Of a stretch of DNA of 64,000 nucleotides, positions 1-45,354 are shown piece by piece. Numbering within the stretch: the first letter of the stretch is position 1; every line of letters starts with the position of its first letter. The position numbers were made by a program, and so were the translations under genes. The DNA comes from Pelagicoccus enzymogenes. Lineage in GTDB: Bacteria; Verrucomicrobiota; Verrucomicrobiia; Opitutales; Opitutaceae. The notes beneath the pieces are model-generated. The model saw nothing but the letters and a program-made list of their open reading frames with translations, ran no database searches and had not been told where the DNA came from. The stretch spans positions 689,501 through 753,500 of the forward strand of contig NZ_JACYFG010000006.1 of NCBI RefSeq assembly GCF_014803405.1. Direction: 5' to 3'.

Positions 1-220
1 CCGCCCGCGCTTGCGGGTACGCCCTCAGGAAAATGGCCGCCGCCTTTTCATTGTCCGGCTTACGAGCAAGCCGGTCCGCCGAAACGCGAGCCGCTTCCGC
101 GAAATCCCCTTGCTTGAAAGCCGACTCTCCCGTCTCGCAACCGGAAAGCAGAATGAGGCCGCACAAAATGAGAACGGCAGTGAAGAAGGGCGTCTGGGGA
201 TCAGCTTTGAGGAATTTCAT
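1..220 (-). CDS. Partial TPR-like lipoprotein (5' end only)
   Basis: This is the N-terminal part of a gene that runs off the left edge. The minus-strand reading frame is open from an ATG at 218-220 and gives 73 residues. It starts with a short basic region and a hydrophobic stretch ending in LLSGC, a lipoprotein signal peptidase II box with the Cys at about residue 28. The next residues (ESAFKQGDFAEAARVSAD, then LARKPDNEKAA) have the spacing and small-residue pattern of a tetratricopeptide repeat. An envelope-anchored TPR protein is therefore likely, but its role cannot be judged from the fragment. It is divergent from the DUF1592 gene at 419, with a shared 198-base gap. Confidence 0.6.
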   Translation of the reverse strand, partial: MKFLKADPQTPFFTAVLILCGLILLSGCETGESAFKQGDFAEAARVSADRLARKPDNEKAAAIFLRAYPQARA

Positions 221-418
221 AGGGAGCCAAAAGACAAGGAGCCTAGGCAAGGCATGAGACGCCGCAAGCCAGCAGGCTATTCATTCCCCGATCCCGTTTT
301 CCTACAATTGGAAACGATTTTCCGGCCCCTTCTGAACGGTTCACCTAATATCTGCTATGCAACTGCCTAATAACATGCAATAGTCGAAGCCCCCCCAAAA
401 ACAAGACACGCTCCCCAA
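221..418. promoter_or_regulatory. Divergent intergenic region, probable promoters
   Basis: The gap lies between a leftward lipoprotein gene and the rightward DUF1592 gene, so it should hold promoters for both. The part from about 280 to 385 is AT-richer than the coding DNA around it. No hexamer pair or operator was convincing by eye. Confidence 0.3.
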
Positions 419-37688: not shown

Positions 37689-38633
37689 ATGCCTGACCCA
37701 CGCATCGCCGCGATCCGCGAATCCCTCACCACCCACATCCACGGCAAGCCTGCCGCCATCGACTCCGTCATCACCTGCCTCATTGCCGGCGGACACATCC
37801 TCATCGAAGACGTTCCGGGAGTGGGAAAAACCACCCTTGCCTACGCCCTCTCGAAAGCGCTGCACAGCGACTTCAACCGCATCCAATTCACTTCCGACCT
37901 CATCCCCTCCGACATCATCGGCGTCTCCATCTACCAGAAACCGGAGTCCCGCTTCGTTTTCCATCCCGGCCCCATCTTCGCAAACGTCGTGCTGGCCGAC
38001 GAAATAAACCGCTCCTCCCCAAAGTCCCAATCCGCCCTGCTCGAGGCCATGGAACGCGGTCTCGTTACCGTCGACGGAGAGTCGCACCCCATCGAGCGCC
38101 CCTTCATCGTCATCGCCACTCAAAATCCCGTCGACTTCGAAAGCACTTTCCCTCTGCCCAACGCCCAGCTCGACCGCTTCCTCATGCGCATTTCCATGGG
38201 CTACCCTGACGCCCAGTCGGAAAAGGAAATGCTGAAAGCGGGAGCCCTGCACTACGACGACATCGACATCGCCCCTGTAGTTGAAAAACAAGACATAGCA
38301 GACCTCCAAGCCCTCGCCCGCGAAATCTTCATCGAAGATTCCACCTACGACTACATCCACGACATCGTCACCAAAACCCGCGATCACCACGCCGTGGAAG
38401 TCGGCGTCAGCCCGCGGGGAGCCCTTGCCTTTAAGACTGCCGTGCAAGCAGCCGCTCTGGTCGACGGTCGCGACTTCGTTACTCCCGAAGACATTCGCCG
38501 CCTCGCCAAGCCTTGCCTCGCCCACCGCCTCCGCCTCCACGAGCGACATGGCTTCGACCTCGACTGGAACGCCGCCGCCGACCTCATCGGCGACATCTTG
38601 ACCGAACTCCCCCAACCCCACCAGAAGGACTGA
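37689..38633 (+). CDS. MoxR-family AAA+ ATPase
   Basis: A 314-residue MoxR ATPase. Walker A is G44-V-G-K-T-T and Walker B is LADEINRS (D104-E105). The sensor segment IVIATQNPVDFESTFPLP and the C-terminal lid (DGRDFVTPEDIRRLAKP) are typical. MoxR proteins act as chaperones for assembling protein complexes and are encoded with DUF58 and transglutaminase proteins, as here. It starts the 37.7-45.4 kb cassette. Confidence 0.93.
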   Translation: MPDPRIAAIRESLTTHIHGKPAAIDSVITCLIAGGHILIEDVPGVGKTTLAYALSKALHSDFNRIQFTSDLIPSDIIGVSIYQKPESRFVFHPGPIFANVVLADEINRSSPKSQSALLEAMERGLVTVDGESHPIERPFIVIATQNPVDFESTFPLPNAQLDRFLMRISMGYPDAQSEKEMLKAGALHYDDIDIAPVVEKQDIADLQALAREIFIEDSTYDYIHDIVTKTRDHHAVEVGVSPRGALAFKTAVQAAALVDGRDFVTPEDIRRLAKPCLAHRLRLHERHGFDLDWNAAADLIGDILTELPQPHQKD

Positions 38634-38686
38634 TTCTCTAATCCCCAAGCAGCGGATTCGCAGGAGATCCAAAGCATCGACGCCAA

Positions 38687-39760
38687 ATGAAACCCAAGCG
38701 AGAGAAAGCGCCCAGCATCTCCGTTTCCTCGGAGGAATCCGGACGGGTCGTGCTGCGGCTTGGCTTAATCTCCCTCGTCATCTACCTGGTCCTTCAAGTC
38801 GACTTTCTTGCCATCGTCGCCTGCGGCCTGCTGGGCGTATACTGGTCGTCCTCCATGCTCGCTCGTTCAAGCCTTGCCGGCCTCCGGATCGCCATATCCA
38901 CCAAACAACTACGCGCTCGCTGCGGAGAACCAGTCGATGCCCGCGTCCACCTAAAGAACGAGAATAGCGTCCTCCCCATCTTCTACCCCACCTTCTCCAT
39001 CCGCGAGGAATCGACCCGGCGGATCCAAGCCTTCCAATTCCACGGAATCGTGTTCCCCGGAAAGGGAGCGCAGCTGAGCGTCGACCCCATCCTCAATACC
39101 CGCGGACTCTGGCATTTGGAAGCCGACTCGCCACGCATCCAATTCCCTTTCGCCCTTCATCTCGCCCAGTCTAAGGCCACTTCGAAATCCCCTGAGATCG
39201 TGGTCTGGCCGCGCCCCGAAACCTTGGATGTCGACTCCCTGCTCAACGAGCCACCTCGCTTCCGCTTCGAGACCTCCGGAGAGCAGTCCATCCTGTCCGA
39301 GAATATTGAAGCAGCCCGGATCCGCGACTACCAAGCCGGCGATCCCAAATCCCGCATCAACTGGAAGCTCTCCGCGAAATTGGACAAGCTCACCATTATC
39401 GAACCACGCGACGAACGCCAAGAACGCTACGAGCTCCACCTCGAAACCTCCAAGGAGCTTTGGCCAAGCGAACTTGCCTTCGAGCGCATGCTTCGACTGG
39501 TCACAACCCTCGTATCCGAACTTTCACGACGTAAGCTAGTTCAAGGCATCACCATCGATGCCCTCCACTACCCGCTTGCTAACAACCGGGACCTCATCCG
39601 TTTCTACGATGCCCTCGCCGTTGCGACACCCAGCTCAAAATCGCCCGAAGCGCCCTTACCTCCCCGTCGCCACCACCTCTGGATCCTTCCCGCTCCCAAC
39701 TCCGAAATCCTGCTCGCGTCCCAATCCGCCCCCACTTTCGAAAGGGAGGTGGTTAGATGA
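38687..39760 (+). CDS. DUF58 membrane protein
   Basis: A 357-residue protein: two membrane helices near the N-terminus (about 24-60), a beta domain, and the DUF58 motif RIRDYQAGDPKSRINWKLSA (about residues 205-224). DUF58 proteins have a von Willebrand-like fold and are found with MoxR. The last ATGA overlaps the start of the transglutaminase gene, so the two are translationally coupled. Confidence 0.9.
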   Translation: MKPKREKAPSISVSSEESGRVVLRLGLISLVIYLVLQVDFLAIVACGLLGVYWSSSMLARSSLAGLRIAISTKQLRARCGEPVDARVHLKNENSVLPIFYPTFSIREESTRRIQAFQFHGIVFPGKGAQLSVDPILNTRGLWHLEADSPRIQFPFALHLAQSKATSKSPEIVVWPRPETLDVDSLLNEPPRFRFETSGEQSILSENIEAARIRDYQAGDPKSRINWKLSAKLDKLTIIEPRDERQERYELHLETSKELWPSELAFERMLRLVTTLVSELSRRKLVQGITIDALHYPLANNRDLIRFYDALAVATPSSKSPEAPLPPRRHHLWILPAPNSEILLASQSAPTFEREVVR

Positions 39761-42700
39761 CCCTCAAGCCCCCCCAAGCGACTCGCCCCGCTCGCATCAC
39801 CTTGAGCTACTGGCTGGCCCTCAGCAGCGGACTAATCGCATTCGCCATCGTTTCGCAGAACCCGCTACTCACCCTCGCAATCGGTGGCGGCAGCCTCGCA
39901 TTGAAATGTTTTCCTCGCTCCGCCTCCAAGTTCGTTCGATACGGATCGCAATTCGTCTTCACCCTGCTGGTCTACACGGCGGCCCTACTTCCCCTTTGGC
40001 CTGAACCGTATTCGGATTACTACTACAGCCCCCTTGTCCTTATCTTTTGCGTTTCCCTGATCGCCGCCCTCAATCGCTTCAGCTACGGCGGAAGCCGCGG
40101 CGTAACAAGCATCGCCGCCATCGCCTTCCTCCTGTTCATCAGAAACATCTTGCTCTTCTTCCACTTCGAGGCGCCGCTTGCCGAGCTCGGCTACAGCCTC
40201 GCTTTCGTCGCCCTCATGGAAGTCGCGCTTTCGCCGCGCTTCAAGGACAGCGAGGACCATCCCCACCCGGAACTCGTGTTCGGGCTCCTCCTCGCCCTCG
40301 TTGCCAGCTTCCACTTCACCTCTCTTCCGCTCGGCCTCGTGCTGGCCGGTCTTCCCATCATCGCCTTTCTCGTCCGCAATCACGAGCTGGCAAAAATCGC
40401 CAACGAACACACTCGGCCCGCACACTCCCTTTCTCCCAGCGCGCCCTCGCCAGCATTCGCCCTCAATCGCTTCGCCCTCGCTGGCCTGCCGCTACTCATC
40501 GCCTTCCTCCTCTACATTACGGCCCTACAGGCTCCGTTCTGGGGAGACTTCCTCCCGGATAACGCTCCCTACTTCACAAAGTCGGTCGCCCAAAAAGCGA
40601 ACTCCATCTCGCAAGCCTCCAACCTTGAGGACGAGATCGTGACCGACACAACCAACCGCGTCGTCAACCCGCAACTCATTCGGGAAAAGGCCAAGCAAAT
40701 CGCCCAAAACTGGCAAGGCGAACCGCAACAAAAACCGCCTCCCAGCGGACGCGAAAACGAAGGAAACAACAAGCGCTTCTCCCAAAACCTGAGAGACGAT
40801 GCGGCAAAGCCCCAGCCCTACGACGAGGACAACTTCGAGTATCGACTCGGCCCCTTCGCCCGTGACCGAGCCCGCCCCCCTTCCCAGACCTACGACGCTT
40901 CGGAACAAGGCGGTGGCGGCCTTCGGTTTCCACAGCTTTCCGAATCTCGCCCTCAGCCCTCGGGACAAAGAAGACTCGACACCGGAACTCCACCCACGCC
41001 GGATGGACTCAAGCCCGGCGTGCCCGGAGGCTTGGATACCGACATCAGCAACTTCACCGGCGGCCCTGAAACAGGGCTCGCTTCCAACTCCCCCTCCGAC
41101 GAAAGCCTGAGCCAGCTGCAACGCTCGGCCACCGAGCCGCTCGCTCCCGAAGCAGATTCGCCCACCGAAGATTTCGACAGGTTCCTCGACTCCTTCGAGC
41201 AACCCGAGAAAGCGATCACCCAAGCGCTCAACCTCGAAGGCAGCGACGTCTCCGCCCTTCTCAGCGAGGAAGCCCTTGCCATCGTCAAACTCGACTCGCC
41301 CCGAGCCGCCCCTCGCCGACTCTACCTGCGTAGTAACGTATTGGATACAGTAGACCGTTACGGAATGGGCGCCATCCGCGGGAGCGAAGGTCGCGTCGAA
41401 CTGCCCGCAGACGAGGATCGCATTCTTACCCTGCGCAGCTTTCGCCAAAGCAAAAGCGAGGGCAGCTCGCTGACGATCACCTCCAATCAAAGCCGCAGCC
41501 CCACCTTGCCCTTGCCAGAGTCGTTTGGGCGTATCCAAGTTTTCGGGGCCGACACCCTGAACGTGTATCCAGAGGAACGAGTGGCACTCGCCCCCCGCTC
41601 CGAGGAGCCGATCTCCTACCGCGTCTACGAGGCGGACCTGGAAGTGACGGATCGAGAACGAAAAGGTTCCAGCCCGAGCGAAGCCTATCGCCAACGCATG
41701 CTGGAGGTACCGCTCGACAGCGACGACCGCGCCTACCTAGAGAAACTCGCCAAACGAGTGGGTGGCAGCCGATCCCCCACTCGCCAATTCGCGTATCGGT
41801 TCGCCAACTACTTCTCCCACCGCCACCCTTACTCCTATTTCGTCGACATTCCGCCAGGGCCCGGACACTCCGTCGTTCGTTGGCTGGAAAACGAGTCCCC
41901 CGGACTCTGCTCCAACTACGCTGCCGCCTTCGTCCTGCTCGCCCGCAGCCGCGGCATTCCTGCTCGCGTTGTCGGAGGCTTCGCGTCGGACGAGTTCGAC
42001 AGCGCCGAGAAACGCTATATCATGCGACAACGCAACGCGCACGCATGGGTCGAGTTCCTCGACGAATCCGATAAGTGGATACGCTTCGACCCCACCCCTG
42101 GCATAAGCGAGACGGAAATTCGCCGCGCGGAACAATACGTCACCGCAGGCAACCCTCTCAGCCTCATGCGCCTGCTCGCCAAAGAGGAGCAAGCAAGCTC
42201 GGACAAGGAAGACACCGACGATCGAAGCTCCTCCCCCGATTCCGAACCGGCTCAGGAGACCGAACCTCCCCTCGAGCTCGCAAAAACCGAAAGCGCTGAG
42301 CCAGTCCCAACCACGCCTGCGGAGAGTACCCCTCCCCAAGCGAAAGCCACCTCCACGCCCGAATCGGGGCCTGGCCCCGAAAATGCGGCCGTCACGCAGA
42401 CGGCCAGCCCCACTCCCAAGCCTTCCCAAGCGTCCCCCTCGAAGCCCGAGACGAAACCATCCACCCCTCCATCGCCGCCCGCCCAACAGCCTACAACTAA
42501 CAGCGAGAACCCAAATTCCACTTCTCGAACAGCAAACGAGGACGCCAACCCGCCTTGGCTTCTCCTACTGGCCGTGTTGGCCCTCGTCATTCCAACCATC
42601 GCCTATCTCATGCGCTTCAAAAAACCAGCCCCCGCGAGCCCCGAACTTCAGCTTCGCCAACAGGCCGGCCGCCTGTTGGCCCAGCTCGACTCCCTCCTCC

Positions 42701-42846
42701 AGCAGCACGAGCTCACCGACGACCCGATCTGGATCGAGACCCGCCAAAACCTCTCCGAGCAGCGTTACGGTCGCGACACCAACCCCATCCTCGTCGAGGA
42801 CCTCGCCGTCAAAGTAGCCCTCCTCTCCAAGCGGAAGCCAAACTAG
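39757..42846 (+). CDS. Large TgpA-like membrane transglutaminase/protease
   Basis: A 1029-residue membrane protein. N-terminal membrane helices (about 20-265) are followed by a long disordered Gly/Pro/Ser/Asp-rich region (about 280-500), then a transglutaminase-like domain with the catalytic triad C718 (GLCSNYAAAF), H762 (NAHAWVEF) and D778 (WIRFDPTPG). A Pro/Thr/Ser-rich linker leads to a last membrane helix (about 933-953) and a short cytoplasmic tail. The core domain sits outside the cytoplasm. Family members couple MoxR and DUF58 to cell-envelope work, but the reaction is not known. The internal disordered region is unusually long. Confidence 0.9.
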   Translation: MTLKPPQATRPARITLSYWLALSSGLIAFAIVSQNPLLTLAIGGGSLALKCFPRSASKFVRYGSQFVFTLLVYTAALLPLWPEPYSDYYYSPLVLIFCVSLIAALNRFSYGGSRGVTSIAAIAFLLFIRNILLFFHFEAPLAELGYSLAFVALMEVALSPRFKDSEDHPHPELVFGLLLALVASFHFTSLPLGLVLAGLPIIAFLVRNHELAKIANEHTRPAHSLSPSAPSPAFALNRFALAGLPLLIAFLLYITALQAPFWGDFLPDNAPYFTKSVAQKANSISQASNLEDEIVTDTTNRVVNPQLIREKAKQIAQNWQGEPQQKPPPSGRENEGNNKRFSQNLRDDAAKPQPYDEDNFEYRLGPFARDRARPPSQTYDASEQGGGGLRFPQLSESRPQPSGQRRLDTGTPPTPDGLKPGVPGGLDTDISNFTGGPETGLASNSPSDESLSQLQRSATEPLAPEADSPTEDFDRFLDSFEQPEKAITQALNLEGSDVSALLSEEALAIVKLDSPRAAPRRLYLRSNVLDTVDRYGMGAIRGSEGRVELPADEDRILTLRSFRQSKSEGSSLTITSNQSRSPTLPLPESFGRIQVFGADTLNVYPEERVALAPRSEEPISYRVYEADLEVTDRERKGSSPSEAYRQRMLEVPLDSDDRAYLEKLAKRVGGSRSPTRQFAYRFANYFSHRHPYSYFVDIPPGPGHSVVRWLENESPGLCSNYAAAFVLLARSRGIPARVVGGFASDEFDSAEKRYIMRQRNAHAWVEFLDESDKWIRFDPTPGISETEIRRAEQYVTAGNPLSLMRLLAKEEQASSDKEDTDDRSSSPDSEPAQETEPPLELAKTESAEPVPTTPAESTPPQAKATSTPESGPGPENAAVTQTASPTPKPSQASPSKPETKPSTPPSPPAQQPTTNSENPNSTSRTANEDANPPWLLLLAVLALVIPTIAYLMRFKKPAPASPELQLRQQAGRLLAQLDSLLQQHELTDDPIWIETRQNLSEQRYGRDTNPILVEDLAVKVALLSKRKPN

Positions 42847-43047
42847 GCGAGCCCCTGTTCCGCGTCTCCCGATTTTCCTGGCAATTTATTTTCTGAATAA
42901 ATGCCCAGATGGCTTCGTCTTTCTCGTGTTGGACCCCGCTCCAGCACTCGTTTTCACTACCCTGGACAAACTGACTTCAAGGACAGCGACCTATCCCATC
43001 GCCTCCCAGGGCGTAGCAAGGCCCCGCCACAAAGGAAATTTAGCACC

Positions 43048-45354
43048 ATGCAAAACCCAGCTCGCAACCGTCTCCTCCGCAGCTCTAAGGCAGTCTTCGC
43101 CTGCGCCTTAGCCATGCTCCTGCTCCCCCTTCCCTACAGCACGCTCGAAGCAGGCGGACGCTCCCGAGAAACCCAAGGGCAGGGACAGACCAATAACTCT
43201 TCCCAACGCTCGGCTCCGAGCCGCACCCAGCCTCGCGCCCAAGCCCGCCCAACCCCGCCGCCACCTCCCCCCGCTTCCAACAATAGCCGCAATAGCAACC
43301 GCAGCAGTTCGCAACAACGCGTCCAACCTTCGCCGCCACCCCGCGTTTCTACCCCCAGCCGCACCCCTTCGCGCTCCACAACCCAGCCACGTCGCACAAC
43401 GCCCCCGCGCAGTGCCCCATCCGTCACCCCTTCGCGCACACCTCAACGGACGCCTCCCCCTCAGGTACGCACCACTCCTCAGGTACGCACCACTCCCCAA
43501 GCGAGCAGAACCCCGTCCCGCGCCACGACTCCCCAGCAACGTCGCGTCACTACCGCGACCACGCAAAACCGCAGCTCGCAACAGAATCGAGCAACCGTCA
43601 GCCGCCCGCAGAGCAATCGGAGCTCCACCATCACCACCAACCGCACTCAACGCAGGGCTCCCGAAAAGACCGCTACCGTAAGTCGCAGCACAAGCACCCA
43701 AACGCGGGTGACCACCCCCAGCTCCACGCAGATACGACGCGCCAACATCGCCACCATCACCCGAGCCAACCGCGACCCCCAGAACCGCAATTCAAGAAAC
43801 AGTACCGTCACCCCTGCTCGTAACCAATCGATCAATACACACCGAGCCTCTACCACGACCACTCGCACAACGACCGTAAGCCGTAATCAGCGAGGCAGTT
43901 CCGATCAGGGCGATAGAAACAGAAACGAACGCCCCAGTCGCCAGATTACCGTAGAAAAGAGCTACGACCAGAACCGAGACGTAGCCCGCACTGTCTACCA
44001 GGAACGACGCGAAAAGACGCGAGCCACCGTTAGCCAGCGCCGAGATCGCGAACGCCAGCAAGTCATCAACCAAATCGAAGGCAAAGGCCAAGGACACGAT
44101 CGCAACGTTCATCCCAAAGTCGCGATTCGCCAAGAGCTCGCGGAACGCTCGCGCCATGACCATCGCGACCAACGCGCCCGCAACGACCGCCACGGCAACC
44201 GCACCACCCGCATCATCCATTTCGACAAGCACCACCATCGCCACAGTTCGAGCTGCGGGCACCACTACTACGAGGGTCGCTGGCACGACTTCCCCCGTCA
44301 CCACCGCCACTATGACGGCTGCGGCCACCATCGCCACTCAGGGACATGGATCTCATTCAGCATCGGCCATGTCCACGGCATCGGTTGCGGACACTTCTAC
44401 GAGAACGGCATCTGGCTGTCCCACGTCGGAAGCCGCCACCGCCACTACTCCGGTTGCGGGCACTATTACTACGACGGTTTTTGGCACAATACATCCTGCT
44501 ATCACATCCATGGACCCGGCTGCGGACACTACTACTACGACGGCCGCTGGAACGATTTCCCCCACACCCACGTCCACACCGACTACTGCGGGCATATGTA
44601 CGACGGAAGCCGCTGGCTCATCGTCAGCTCGGACACTCATGTCCATAGCGCCAACTGCGGACACTACAAAATCTCAGGTCGGTGGTATGCGTATCCGAGA
44701 GAATACTACACCATGAATCGGGAAAACAGCCTCTACTTCTTTGTGGACCTAGGCGACTATCGCAACCGGAACATCCCCGAAGAAGCGTACGAAGCATACC
44801 TCGACGGCGGCAGTCCCGTCGACATCTTCCGCTCGAGCCAAGCCTTGGCCAAAGCCTACGCAGCCTTTGCCAAAGGCAGCTACTACGACTCCCTCGTACA
44901 ATTCAAGATCGCGAGCAAGAGGGAACCGCAGAATGCCCTCATCCACCTCGCCAGCGCCCAAGCCCAGATCGCCGTAAAAGACTATCGATCCGCCTTCGAC
45001 GACATCGTACGCGGTCTTGAACTCTTCCCCGAGTGGGCAGACGCATACGTTAACCTAAGCGAAATCTACTCCCGCACCGAAGACCTAGAGCGGCACTCCC
45101 AGCTCCTCAAGGACTGGGTCGCTCGCTACCCGCGCGACTACAAGGCCCACTTCGTCCTCGGATACTTCTACTACTTCCATCAGGAGTACGATGCCGCTAA
45201 AGACGAGCTGCTCTACGCCCTTTCTTGGGACGACGACCTCAAAGCCGCCCATATCCTCATGGACCACATCTTAGCCTTCGAGGCCGAGTCCGAAGTCCTC
45301 ACCATCGAGGAAGAGGCCTCCCCCGAGGAAGAAGCCATCATCACCACAGAATGA
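43048..45354 (+). CDS. Secreted protein with seven His/Cys repeats and a C-terminal TPR region
   Basis: A 768-residue protein of no family I recognise. Residues 1-35 are a signal peptide (ACALAMLLLPLPYSTLEAGG). Residues about 40-300 are low-complexity Ser/Thr/Arg/Pro/Gln. Residues about 300-390 are charged and coiled-coil-like. Residues 395-546 hold seven tandem repeats with the pattern H-x-H-x3-C-G-H-x5-G-x-W. The Cys are at 403, 425, 447, 470, 492, 514 and 537 (steps of 22, 22, 23, 22, 22, 23), and a Trp follows nine residues after each. Residues about 590-740 are TPR-like. The repeats look like metal-binding units. I start at the ATG at 43048, where the signal begins. It follows the MoxR/DUF58/transglutaminase genes on the same strand after a 201-base gap and could be their substrate or partner; this is inference. 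Confidence 0.7.
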   Translation: MQNPARNRLLRSSKAVFACALAMLLLPLPYSTLEAGGRSRETQGQGQTNNSSQRSAPSRTQPRAQARPTPPPPPPASNNSRNSNRSSSQQRVQPSPPPRVSTPSRTPSRSTTQPRRTTPPRSAPSVTPSRTPQRTPPPQVRTTPQVRTTPQASRTPSRATTPQQRRVTTATTQNRSSQQNRATVSRPQSNRSSTITTNRTQRRAPEKTATVSRSTSTQTRVTTPSSTQIRRANIATITRANRDPQNRNSRNSTVTPARNQSINTHRASTTTTRTTTVSRNQRGSSDQGDRNRNERPSRQITVEKSYDQNRDVARTVYQERREKTRATVSQRRDRERQQVINQIEGKGQGHDRNVHPKVAIRQELAERSRHDHRDQRARNDRHGNRTTRIIHFDKHHHRHSSSCGHHYYEGRWHDFPRHHRHYDGCGHHRHSGTWISFSIGHVHGIGCGHFYENGIWLSHVGSRHRHYSGCGHYYYDGFWHNTSCYHIHGPGCGHYYYDGRWNDFPHTHVHTDYCGHMYDGSRWLIVSSDTHVHSANCGHYKISGRWYAYPREYYTMNRENSLYFFVDLGDYRNRNIPEEAYEAYLDGGSPVDIFRSSQALAKAYAAFAKGSYYDSLVQFKIASKREPQNALIHLASAQAQIAVKDYRSAFDDIVRGLELFPEWADAYVNLSEIYSRTEDLERHSQLLKDWVARYPRDYKAHFVLGYFYYFHQEYDAAKDELLYALSWDDDLKAAHILMDHILAFEAESEVLTIEEEASPEEEAIITTE
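44230..44685 (+). other. Seven-fold HxHx3CGHx5GxW repeat block
   Basis: The coding block for residues 395-546 of the secreted protein. HxH, CGH and Trp are present in all seven units; Gly at Cys+7 is in six, and in unit 6 it is shifted by one. The only extra Cys is at 484. Confidence 0.85.

What the first reader, a model, noticed from the sequence alone, without database searches (positions are those of the whole stretch)
43048..45354. Seven perfect HxHx3CGH...W repeats in a secreted protein: candidate new metal-binding repeat
Seen directly: seven tandem units at residues 395-546, each with HxH, three residues, CGH, then a Trp at Cys+9. The Cys spacing is 22, 22, 23, 22, 22, 23. HxH, CGH and Trp are invariant in all seven units although the residues between vary, which points to selection on the His/Cys set. 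Each unit offers up to three His and one Cys, a good zinc, copper or nickel site. The protein is exported, has a long Arg/Ser/Thr/Pro low-complexity N-terminus that could bind a polymer or surface, and a TPR C-terminus. I know of no described family with this exact repeat; I could not search.
Basis: partly seen in the sequence, partly recalled or inferred. Interest (0 to 1): 0.85.

Follow-up and report, generated by a model that had tools for sequence, protein, structure and literature searches.

The report
Exported seven-unit His/Cys metal-site repeat
A marine bacterium makes an apparently exported protein with seven copies of a 22-residue motif whose three histidines and one cysteine stay almost fixed while the rest changes, which points to an undescribed family of small metal-binding repeats.

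Summary
No Pfam or NCBIfam model covers the units. They are a real family: orthologues, mostly with 5-7 units, in the own family, and separate small exported-looking proteins of the same unit in Planctomycetota and Eisenbacteria. In 13 orthologues found through the TPR part alone, ligand residues match the window in 353 of 357 cells, other repeat residues in 744 of 1428; non-ligand His behave like the latter (59 of 101). In non-orthologous members, 5 of 8 non-His residues at the His positions are Cys. Three of 16 orthologues lost the units but kept the TPRs, so the module is dispensable. All 16 family orthologues with upstream sequence share an ECF-type promoter, TGAATA-N15-TCGTCT or a close form; a similar element precedes a lipoprotein gene in 7 of 7 genus members in which that gene was found. 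Most likely each unit is a beta-hairpin nucleated by one zinc (or copper/nickel) ion through HxH and CxH. Metal binding was not shown, and the AlphaFold hairpins have low confidence. Verdict: new variant of a known kind.

The parts
42894..42920 (+). Promoter-like element TGAATA-N15-TCGTCT, ECF-sigma type, upstream of the gene
   Evidence: The two hexamers are the only invariant columns in 10 aligned upstream regions (pairwise identity 1.00 against 0.29-0.39 around them). Present, with at most one base change and N14 or N15, in 16 of 16 family orthologues with upstream sequence; not found upstream of the Sumerlaeota-MAG orthologue L058. Exact form once in the 64-kb window.
43048..45354 (+). Gene for the apparently exported repeat/TPR protein, 768 aa
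   Evidence: Translation P0001; start supported by two orthologues.
43048..43152 (+). Apparent signal peptide, residues 1-35
   Evidence: Read by eye; same kind of N-terminus in orthologues. No predictor was run.
43153..44082 (+). Low-complexity basic stretch, residues 36-345, net charge +45; R 56, T 53, S 42, Q 34, P 34
   Evidence: Composition; same character in orthologues by eye.
44236..44283 (+). Unit 1, residues 397-412
44302..44349 (+). Unit 2, residues 419-434
44368..44415 (+). Unit 3, residues 441-456
44437..44484 (+). Unit 4, residues 464-479
44503..44550 (+). Unit 5, residues 486-501; an eighth, non-ligand Cys lies just before it
44569..44616 (+). Unit 6, residues 508-523; the Gly of CGH is Glu in two relatives while Cys and His stay
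44638..44685 (+). Unit 7, residues 531-546
44779..45315 (+). C-terminal TPR-like helical domain, about residues 578-756
   Evidence: AlphaFold helices; Foldseek TPR matches; Pfam/NCBIfam TPR models below cut-offs.
257..283 (-). Second copy of the element, TGAATA-N15-GCGTCT, before a lipoprotein-like gene: candidate co-regulated gene
   Evidence: TGAAT(A/G)-N15-NCGTC(T/C) stands before this gene in 7 of 7 genus members in which it was found.
1..220 (-). Start of that lipoprotein-like gene, from its first in-frame ATG; continues beyond the window (L167:3093-4220)
   Evidence: no Pfam family.

Best explanation
The seven units are an undescribed family of very small metal-site repeats. In each, HxH and CxH (three His, one Cys) hold one ion, most likely Zn(II), at the base of a two-stranded beta-hairpin; the ion replaces the hydrophobic core that a 22-residue unit lacks, and the invariant Trp packs on the hairpin. 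Seven such beads form a metal-dependent arm outside the cytoplasm, between a basic, probably disordered N-terminus and a TPR domain that binds a partner. The gene is switched on from its own ECF-type promoter, together with an envelope lipoprotein, so it probably belongs to an envelope-stress response. Shown: the units, their conservation, the His/Cys exchange, the wider family, the promoter conservation at both genes, the TPR prediction. Inferred: export, metal, metal identity, one ion per unit, the fold of the unit, the sigma factor and the stress link, any partner.
For: (1) Orthologues found with the TPR part only (17 of 252 family genomes including the own one): in 13 of 16 non-self orthologues ligand residues equal the window's in 353 of 357 cells; changed codons are 136 synonymous and 4 replacing, against 401 and 684 for other repeat residues, 27 and 42 for non-ligand His in the same units, and 637 and 927 in the TPR part. 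(2) The Gly of CGH becomes Glu or Arg in three units while Cys and His stay. (3) In 99 units anchored on Cys and Trp in 27 non-orthologous proteins, 8 of 297 His-position cells are not His, and 5 of those 8 are Cys (background 1.2%; binomial 1.5e-8, or 3.6e-5 if counted as three events). (4) The same tandem HxHx3CGH occurs in UreE, CobW, a nickel-insertion protein, P-type ATPases and a FeMo-Co-type protein: 13 of the 20 scanned of 27 other hits. (5) Both AlphaFold runs give one hairpin per unit (low confidence). (6) Promoter conserved at 16 of 16 family orthologues and at a lipoprotein gene in 7 of 7 genus members, with a CGTCT -10 as in listed Streptomyces coelicolor sigma-E targets (PMC6767563, passages seen).
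Against: Three of 16 orthologues have lost or decayed units, Cys more than His (ligand Cys kept in 1 of 13 cells, ligand His in 17 of 44), while keeping the TPRs; two of these three have upstream sequence and keep the promoter, one exactly, one with N14 and one base changed. So the core role does not need the metal sites. Same-genus genome G063 has no orthologue. AlphaFold confidence for the units is about 26-36 (seven units) and 52 (three units). Three of the five Cys exchanges share one HRC...CTH form and may be one event, and the profile A2 that found two of those three proteins already held one such row. The pattern selects His-rich proteins, which by itself favours metal proteins in point 4. 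No metal transporter or metal regulator was recognised next to the gene (Pfam for four window neighbours and six genes near L040, L061 and L073; the rest by eye).
Confidence: 0.55

Rival explanations
1. Metal sink or chaperone: the units bind metal loosely and exchange it, buffering zinc, copper or nickel in the periplasm or handing it to partners through the TPR domain; the unit has no fixed fold.
For: The same motif sits in His-rich stretches of proteins with UreE, CobW and nickel-insertion domains. AlphaFold confidence is low. Some relatives' genomes have matches on several contigs, and several members are short and lipoprotein-like.
Against: Fixed spacing, an invariant Trp (90 of 90 cells) and replaceable non-ligand His (42 of 69 changed codons replace it) do not look like a loose His-rich tail. 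No metal-transport neighbour was recognised.
Confidence: 0.25
2. Aromatic/His adhesive or glycan-binding hairpin repeat without metal; Cys forms disulfides between units.
For: Apparently exported protein, many Tyr and Trp, hairpin prediction. The window and three relatives (L041, L060, L069) have an eighth Cys in the block, so all Cys could pair there.
Against: Seven ligand Cys, an odd number, is the commonest state, and the eighth Cys is absent in 8 of the 12 aligned sequences. Tyr/Phe change about as freely as other residues (113 of 175 changed codons replace them) while the ligand set does not. His-to-Cys exchange fits metal sites better than disulfides.
Confidence: 0.12
3. Catalytic or haem site using the HxHx3CGH loop, in the way PHP-domain phosphoesterases use theirs.
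For: A near-match in the PDB by sequence is the HxHx3CGH stretch of histidinol phosphatase 2yxo (E 1.0-1.5, not significant). HxH of PHP motif I corresponds to metal-coordinating residues of YcdX (PMC6616362, passages seen).
Against: No PHP domain is found; seven copies of an active site without a domain around them would be odd. Haem binding has no positive evidence here.
Confidence: 0.04

Closest known systems
PHP-domain metal site, motif I (histidinol phosphatase 2yxo; E. coli YcdX)
   Same: HxHx3CGH stretch in 2yxo; HxH of motif I is metal-coordinating. That the third His is also a ligand is recalled.
   Different: Single site inside an enzyme domain with several further ligands (TIM-barrel fold recalled); no repeat.
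His-rich stretches of UreE, CobW and nickel-insertion proteins
   Same: Tandem HxHx3CGH at 22-residue spacing.
   Different: His-dense tails without the G-x-W hairpin half (by eye); cytoplasmic enzymes or chaperones (recalled).
Zinc knuckles and other mini zinc fingers (recalled)
   Same: About 20 residues, four His/Cys ligands, metal in place of a core.
   Different: Order HxH...CxH with three His and one Cys; long tandem array; apparently exported.
Tetratricopeptide-repeat proteins such as PrsT (TIGR02917) and MamA
   Same: TPR C-terminus.
   Different: Scores far below family cut-offs (37.4 of 312.2 and 24.3 of 200 bits); the matches cover the TPR part only.

Membership tests
Any Pfam or NCBIfam family, for the repeat block | Match at or above the curated score | tested here: not met
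   P0001 and eight relatives against Pfam, P0001 and five relatives against NCBIfam: over the units only chance-level GFP (E 0.11) and EFP_N (E 0.45).
TPR repeat | Pfam TPR score above cut-off | tested here: not met
   Best E-value TPR_17: 20.9 bits, cut-off 24.4.
TPR repeat | Helical TPR fold | tested here: met
   Confident helices; best Foldseek match a designed TPR protein, E 7.6e-05.
PHP domain | HxH motif together with the rest of the PHP domain | tested here: not met
   No PHP hit in Pfam; 2yxo aligned over 10 residues only, E 1.0-1.5.
Metal-site repeat (kind, not family) | Four His/Cys per unit under purifying selection | tested here: met
   353 of 357 cells kept in 13 orthologues; 3 of 16 orthologues are exceptions.
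Metal-site repeat (kind, not family) | Ligands meet at one site and hold a metal | not testable with these tools
   No coordinates returned and low pLDDT.
ECF-sigma promoter | Two conserved boxes about 16-17 bp apart with a CGTC-type -10 | tested here: met
   TGAATA-N15-T-CGTCT; compared with PMC6767563 passages.
ECF-sigma promoter | Transcription depends on an ECF sigma factor | not testable with these tools
   No expression data.

The most novel reading that the evidence does not exclude
A new, widespread class of exported metal-nucleated hairpin repeat (one ion per 22-residue unit, H-x-H-x3-C-x-H, W-locked), used in arrays of two to about nine units by bacteria of several phyla; in Pelagicoccus and relatives it is part of a small ECF-controlled envelope regulon with a lipoprotein.
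Probability: 0.5. Interest if true: 0.7.

Novelty: new variant of a known kind. Interest (0 to 1): 0.55.

Why it matters
If right, this names an uncatalogued repeat family found in Verrucomicrobiota, Planctomycetota, Eisenbacteria and one Sumerlaeota MAG, gives a very small metal-folded module, and offers a clean handle (one repeat, one ion) for how these poorly studied bacteria manage metal or build their envelopes. The promoter shared with a lipoprotein gene gives a direct test of when the protein is made.

Tried and rejected
Conserved operon: MoxR, DUF58-like and transglutaminase genes (37689-42846) lie upstream here and in L069 but not in L040, L055, L060, L061 or L073, which hold 2.7 kb or more of upstream sequence. 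A mechanosensitive-channel gene (MS_channel_2nd) follows on the other strand here and in L003, L004, L041, L050, L060 and L069, but not in the fetched flanks of the other genera. Mobile or phage origin: viral contigs gave no relative of the window fragment; plasmids and phages gave none of the L047 units. No fold search of the repeat block was run, as the model is too poor; the one run finds the TPR part. Papers: searches listed none; one unrelated paper; one UreE paper (listing and abstract start only); one search held 24, listed 8, one of them read in passages, another asked for in vain (not repeated); three, one read in passages. That the repeat is not in print rests, in an open-licence PMC library only. 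Neighbours of the Planctomycetota/Eisenbacteria genes were listed but not scanned.

Full report
Observation. The open frame 43048-45354 encodes 768 residues: an apparent signal peptide, a basic low-complexity stretch (residues 36-345, net charge +45), seven HxHx3CGHx6W units (residues 397-546) and a helical C-terminus. The six motif residues are the only invariant columns of the seven units. Cys spacings are 22, 22, 23, 22, 22, 23.

Where it is. marks G089, G960, G961 and G963 as the same genus as the window's genome; their contig lengths equal those of Pelagicoccus sp. SDUM812005, P. mobilis, Verrucomicrobiae strain DG1235 and Pelagicoccus sp. SDUM812002, and their TPR parts are 85, 73, 71 and 82% identical to the window's. 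The window is therefore from Pelagicoccus (Verrucomicrobiota, Opitutia). The genome itself is unnamed.

Known families. Pfam finds only TPR models below cut-off plus a chance GFP hit; NCBIfam only TPR families far below cut-off. Six non-orthologous proteins with the same units and two orthologues have no Pfam family over the units beyond one chance hit. PDB sequences give a 10-residue match to histidinol phosphatase and two lectin rows, all with E of 1 or more. Paper searches found no description.

Distribution. A scan of genome contigs for two intact units at 22-residue spacing gave 44 stretches. By reading and Pfam: 11 orthologues (10 from Verrucomicrobiota records, 1 from a Sumerlaeota MAG on a 5-kb contig), 6 other exported-looking proteins of the same unit (four records titled Planctomycetota or Phycisphaerales, one titled only 'bacterium', one Eisenbacteria), and 27 others. 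Of those 27 I scanned 20: UreE 4, CobW 5, nickel insertion 1, P-type ATPase 2, FeMo-Co type 1, DUF1980 2 (one of them below cut-off), eCIS core 2, TPR 1, no family 2; 7 were not scanned. A two-unit profile matched 5 of 387 genomes of the own phylum (four in the own family, the own one included, and G395 with a short lipoprotein-like two-unit protein), 19 of 392 of the phylum of the Phycisphaerales MAG (four of them already known), and 2 of 7 of the Eisenbacteria phylum (one already known). The own genome shows this one locus. Non-orthologous members run from two units on a short lipoprotein-like chain (L063, L106) to about nine longer units with a second Cys (L117) and a Cys-rich form (L128).

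Selection. To avoid choosing orthologues by their repeats, I searched the family with the TPR part alone: 17 of 252 genomes, in 3 of 49 genera. Of 16 non-self orthologues, 13 keep a long block: 9 have seven HxHx3CxH units, 3 have six, 1 has five. At the 28 ligand sites 217 codons are identical, 136 synonymous, 4 replaced (7 gaps). Other repeat sites: 343, 401, 684. Non-ligand His: 32, 27, 42. Tyr/Phe: 107, 62, 113. Trp: 90 of 90 kept. The set, chosen by intact units, gives the same picture (4 replacements among 99 changed ligand codons). The other three orthologues (L142, L145, L146) have zero, one and zero intact units, with ligand identity 18 of 57. The module can therefore be lost while the TPR domain is kept; this is the main fact against a vital metal role.

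Ligand exchange. In 27 non-orthologous proteins I anchored units only on a Cys and a Trp at +9, so units without Cys are not seen. Of 297 His-position cells in 99 units (one spurious row dropped), 289 are His, 5 Cys, 3 other; the three others lie in two units whose HxH pair sits one residue further from the Cys. Three of the five Cys cases share the form HRC...CTH and may be one event, and one such row was in the profile used to find two of the proteins. His-to-Cys exchange is what metal ligands allow. Conversely, given HxHx3?xHx6W, the open position is Cys in 93 of 93 non-orthologous units and in 94 of 96 units of the 17 orthologues; the two exceptions are in reduced orthologues.

Structure. 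AlphaFold on the block plus TPRs with 12 sequences: units at pLDDT about 26-36, TPR helices mostly 82-96; all seven units have two strands, in unit 1 at Cys+2 to +5 and +8 to +11. A three-unit model with 28 sequences reaches 52 and shows the same hairpins.

Promoter. Upstream sequences of orthologues share TGAATA-N15-TCGTCT and little else: in 10 aligned regions these 12 columns are the only invariant ones, with pairwise identity 1.00 against 0.29 upstream, 0.39 in the spacer and 0.37 downstream. These ten were chosen because they hold the motif; but of the 17 family orthologues, all 16 with upstream sequence have it: the window and nine loci and six more, with N14 in two (L067, L168), GCGTCT in two (L168, L170) and TCGTCC in one (L171; its position before the gene is checked). 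The seventeenth (G057) runs off its contig. Two of the three reduced orthologues are among the 16 (L168, L169). The Sumerlaeota-MAG orthologue shows no such site. In 464 kb of the own chromosome the exact element occurs only here; TGAATA-N15-NCGTCT occurs three times, against 0.0 on average in five Markov simulations. In the window, up to two mismatches gives 7 matches against 2.7 expected, so weak matches mean little.

A second gene. One of the three sites lies at window 257-283 (-), 36 bases before the first in-frame ATG of a lipoprotein-like gene without a Pfam family. A search of 12 genomes found this gene in 7, all of the own genus; P. mobilis (G960) and the four genomes of other genera had none. 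In all 7 a TGAAT(A/G)-N15-NCGTC(T/C) element stands upstream: TGAATA-N15-NCGTCT in five, TGAATG...GCGTCT in L177, TGAATA...ACGTCC in L180. This includes G063, which lacks the repeat gene. So the element looks like a regulon signal. The CGTCT -10 and the 16-bp spacing to it resemble ECF promoters, for example those of S. coelicolor sigma-E (PMC6767563, passages). No sigma factor was assigned.

Mechanism. Three His and one Cys per 22 residues with no room for a hydrophobic core suggest a metal-nucleated hairpin, Zn(II) first by ligand set (inference). The array would be a metal-dependent arm between a basic, probably disordered N-terminus and a TPR domain. A looser metal sink is the main rival. 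Neither metal nor partner was shown.

Verdict. Without a metal measurement or a confident fold it is a new variant of a known kind (small His/Cys metal-site repeats), not a new kind.

Noticed in passing
window 1-283 (-): Lipoprotein-like gene of unknown family under the same promoter type as the repeat gene; element found in 7 of 7 genus members that have the gene, including G063, which lacks the repeat gene.
   Followed up: yes
L117:952-2124 and L128:3-2087: Relatives from the Planctomycetota-centred sample with longer units: about nine HxHx3CGHYYWH..W units with an extra Cys (L117), and a CxxC-rich form (L128).
   Followed up: no
L030, L031 (also L043, L057, L064, not scanned): Actinomycete proteins with two HxHx3CGH motifs before an eCIS_core domain (Pfam in L030 and L031; L030 also has a sub-threshold PARP match); by eye they lack the G-x-W half.
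   Followed up: partly
L058: Full seven-unit orthologue on a 5-kb contig of a Sumerlaeota MAG, without the promoter of the family: transfer or mis-binning.
   Followed up: partly
window 37689-42846: MoxR-type ATPase, DUF58-like (below Pfam cut-off) and transglutaminase-like genes directly upstream; kept next to the repeat gene in L069.
   Followed up: partly
L040, L055, L059, L061, L067, L073: A second conserved box, AAAGCGCTT, 10 bases downstream of the TCGTCT hexamer in the six aligned relatives outside the Pelagicoccus genus.
   Followed up: no
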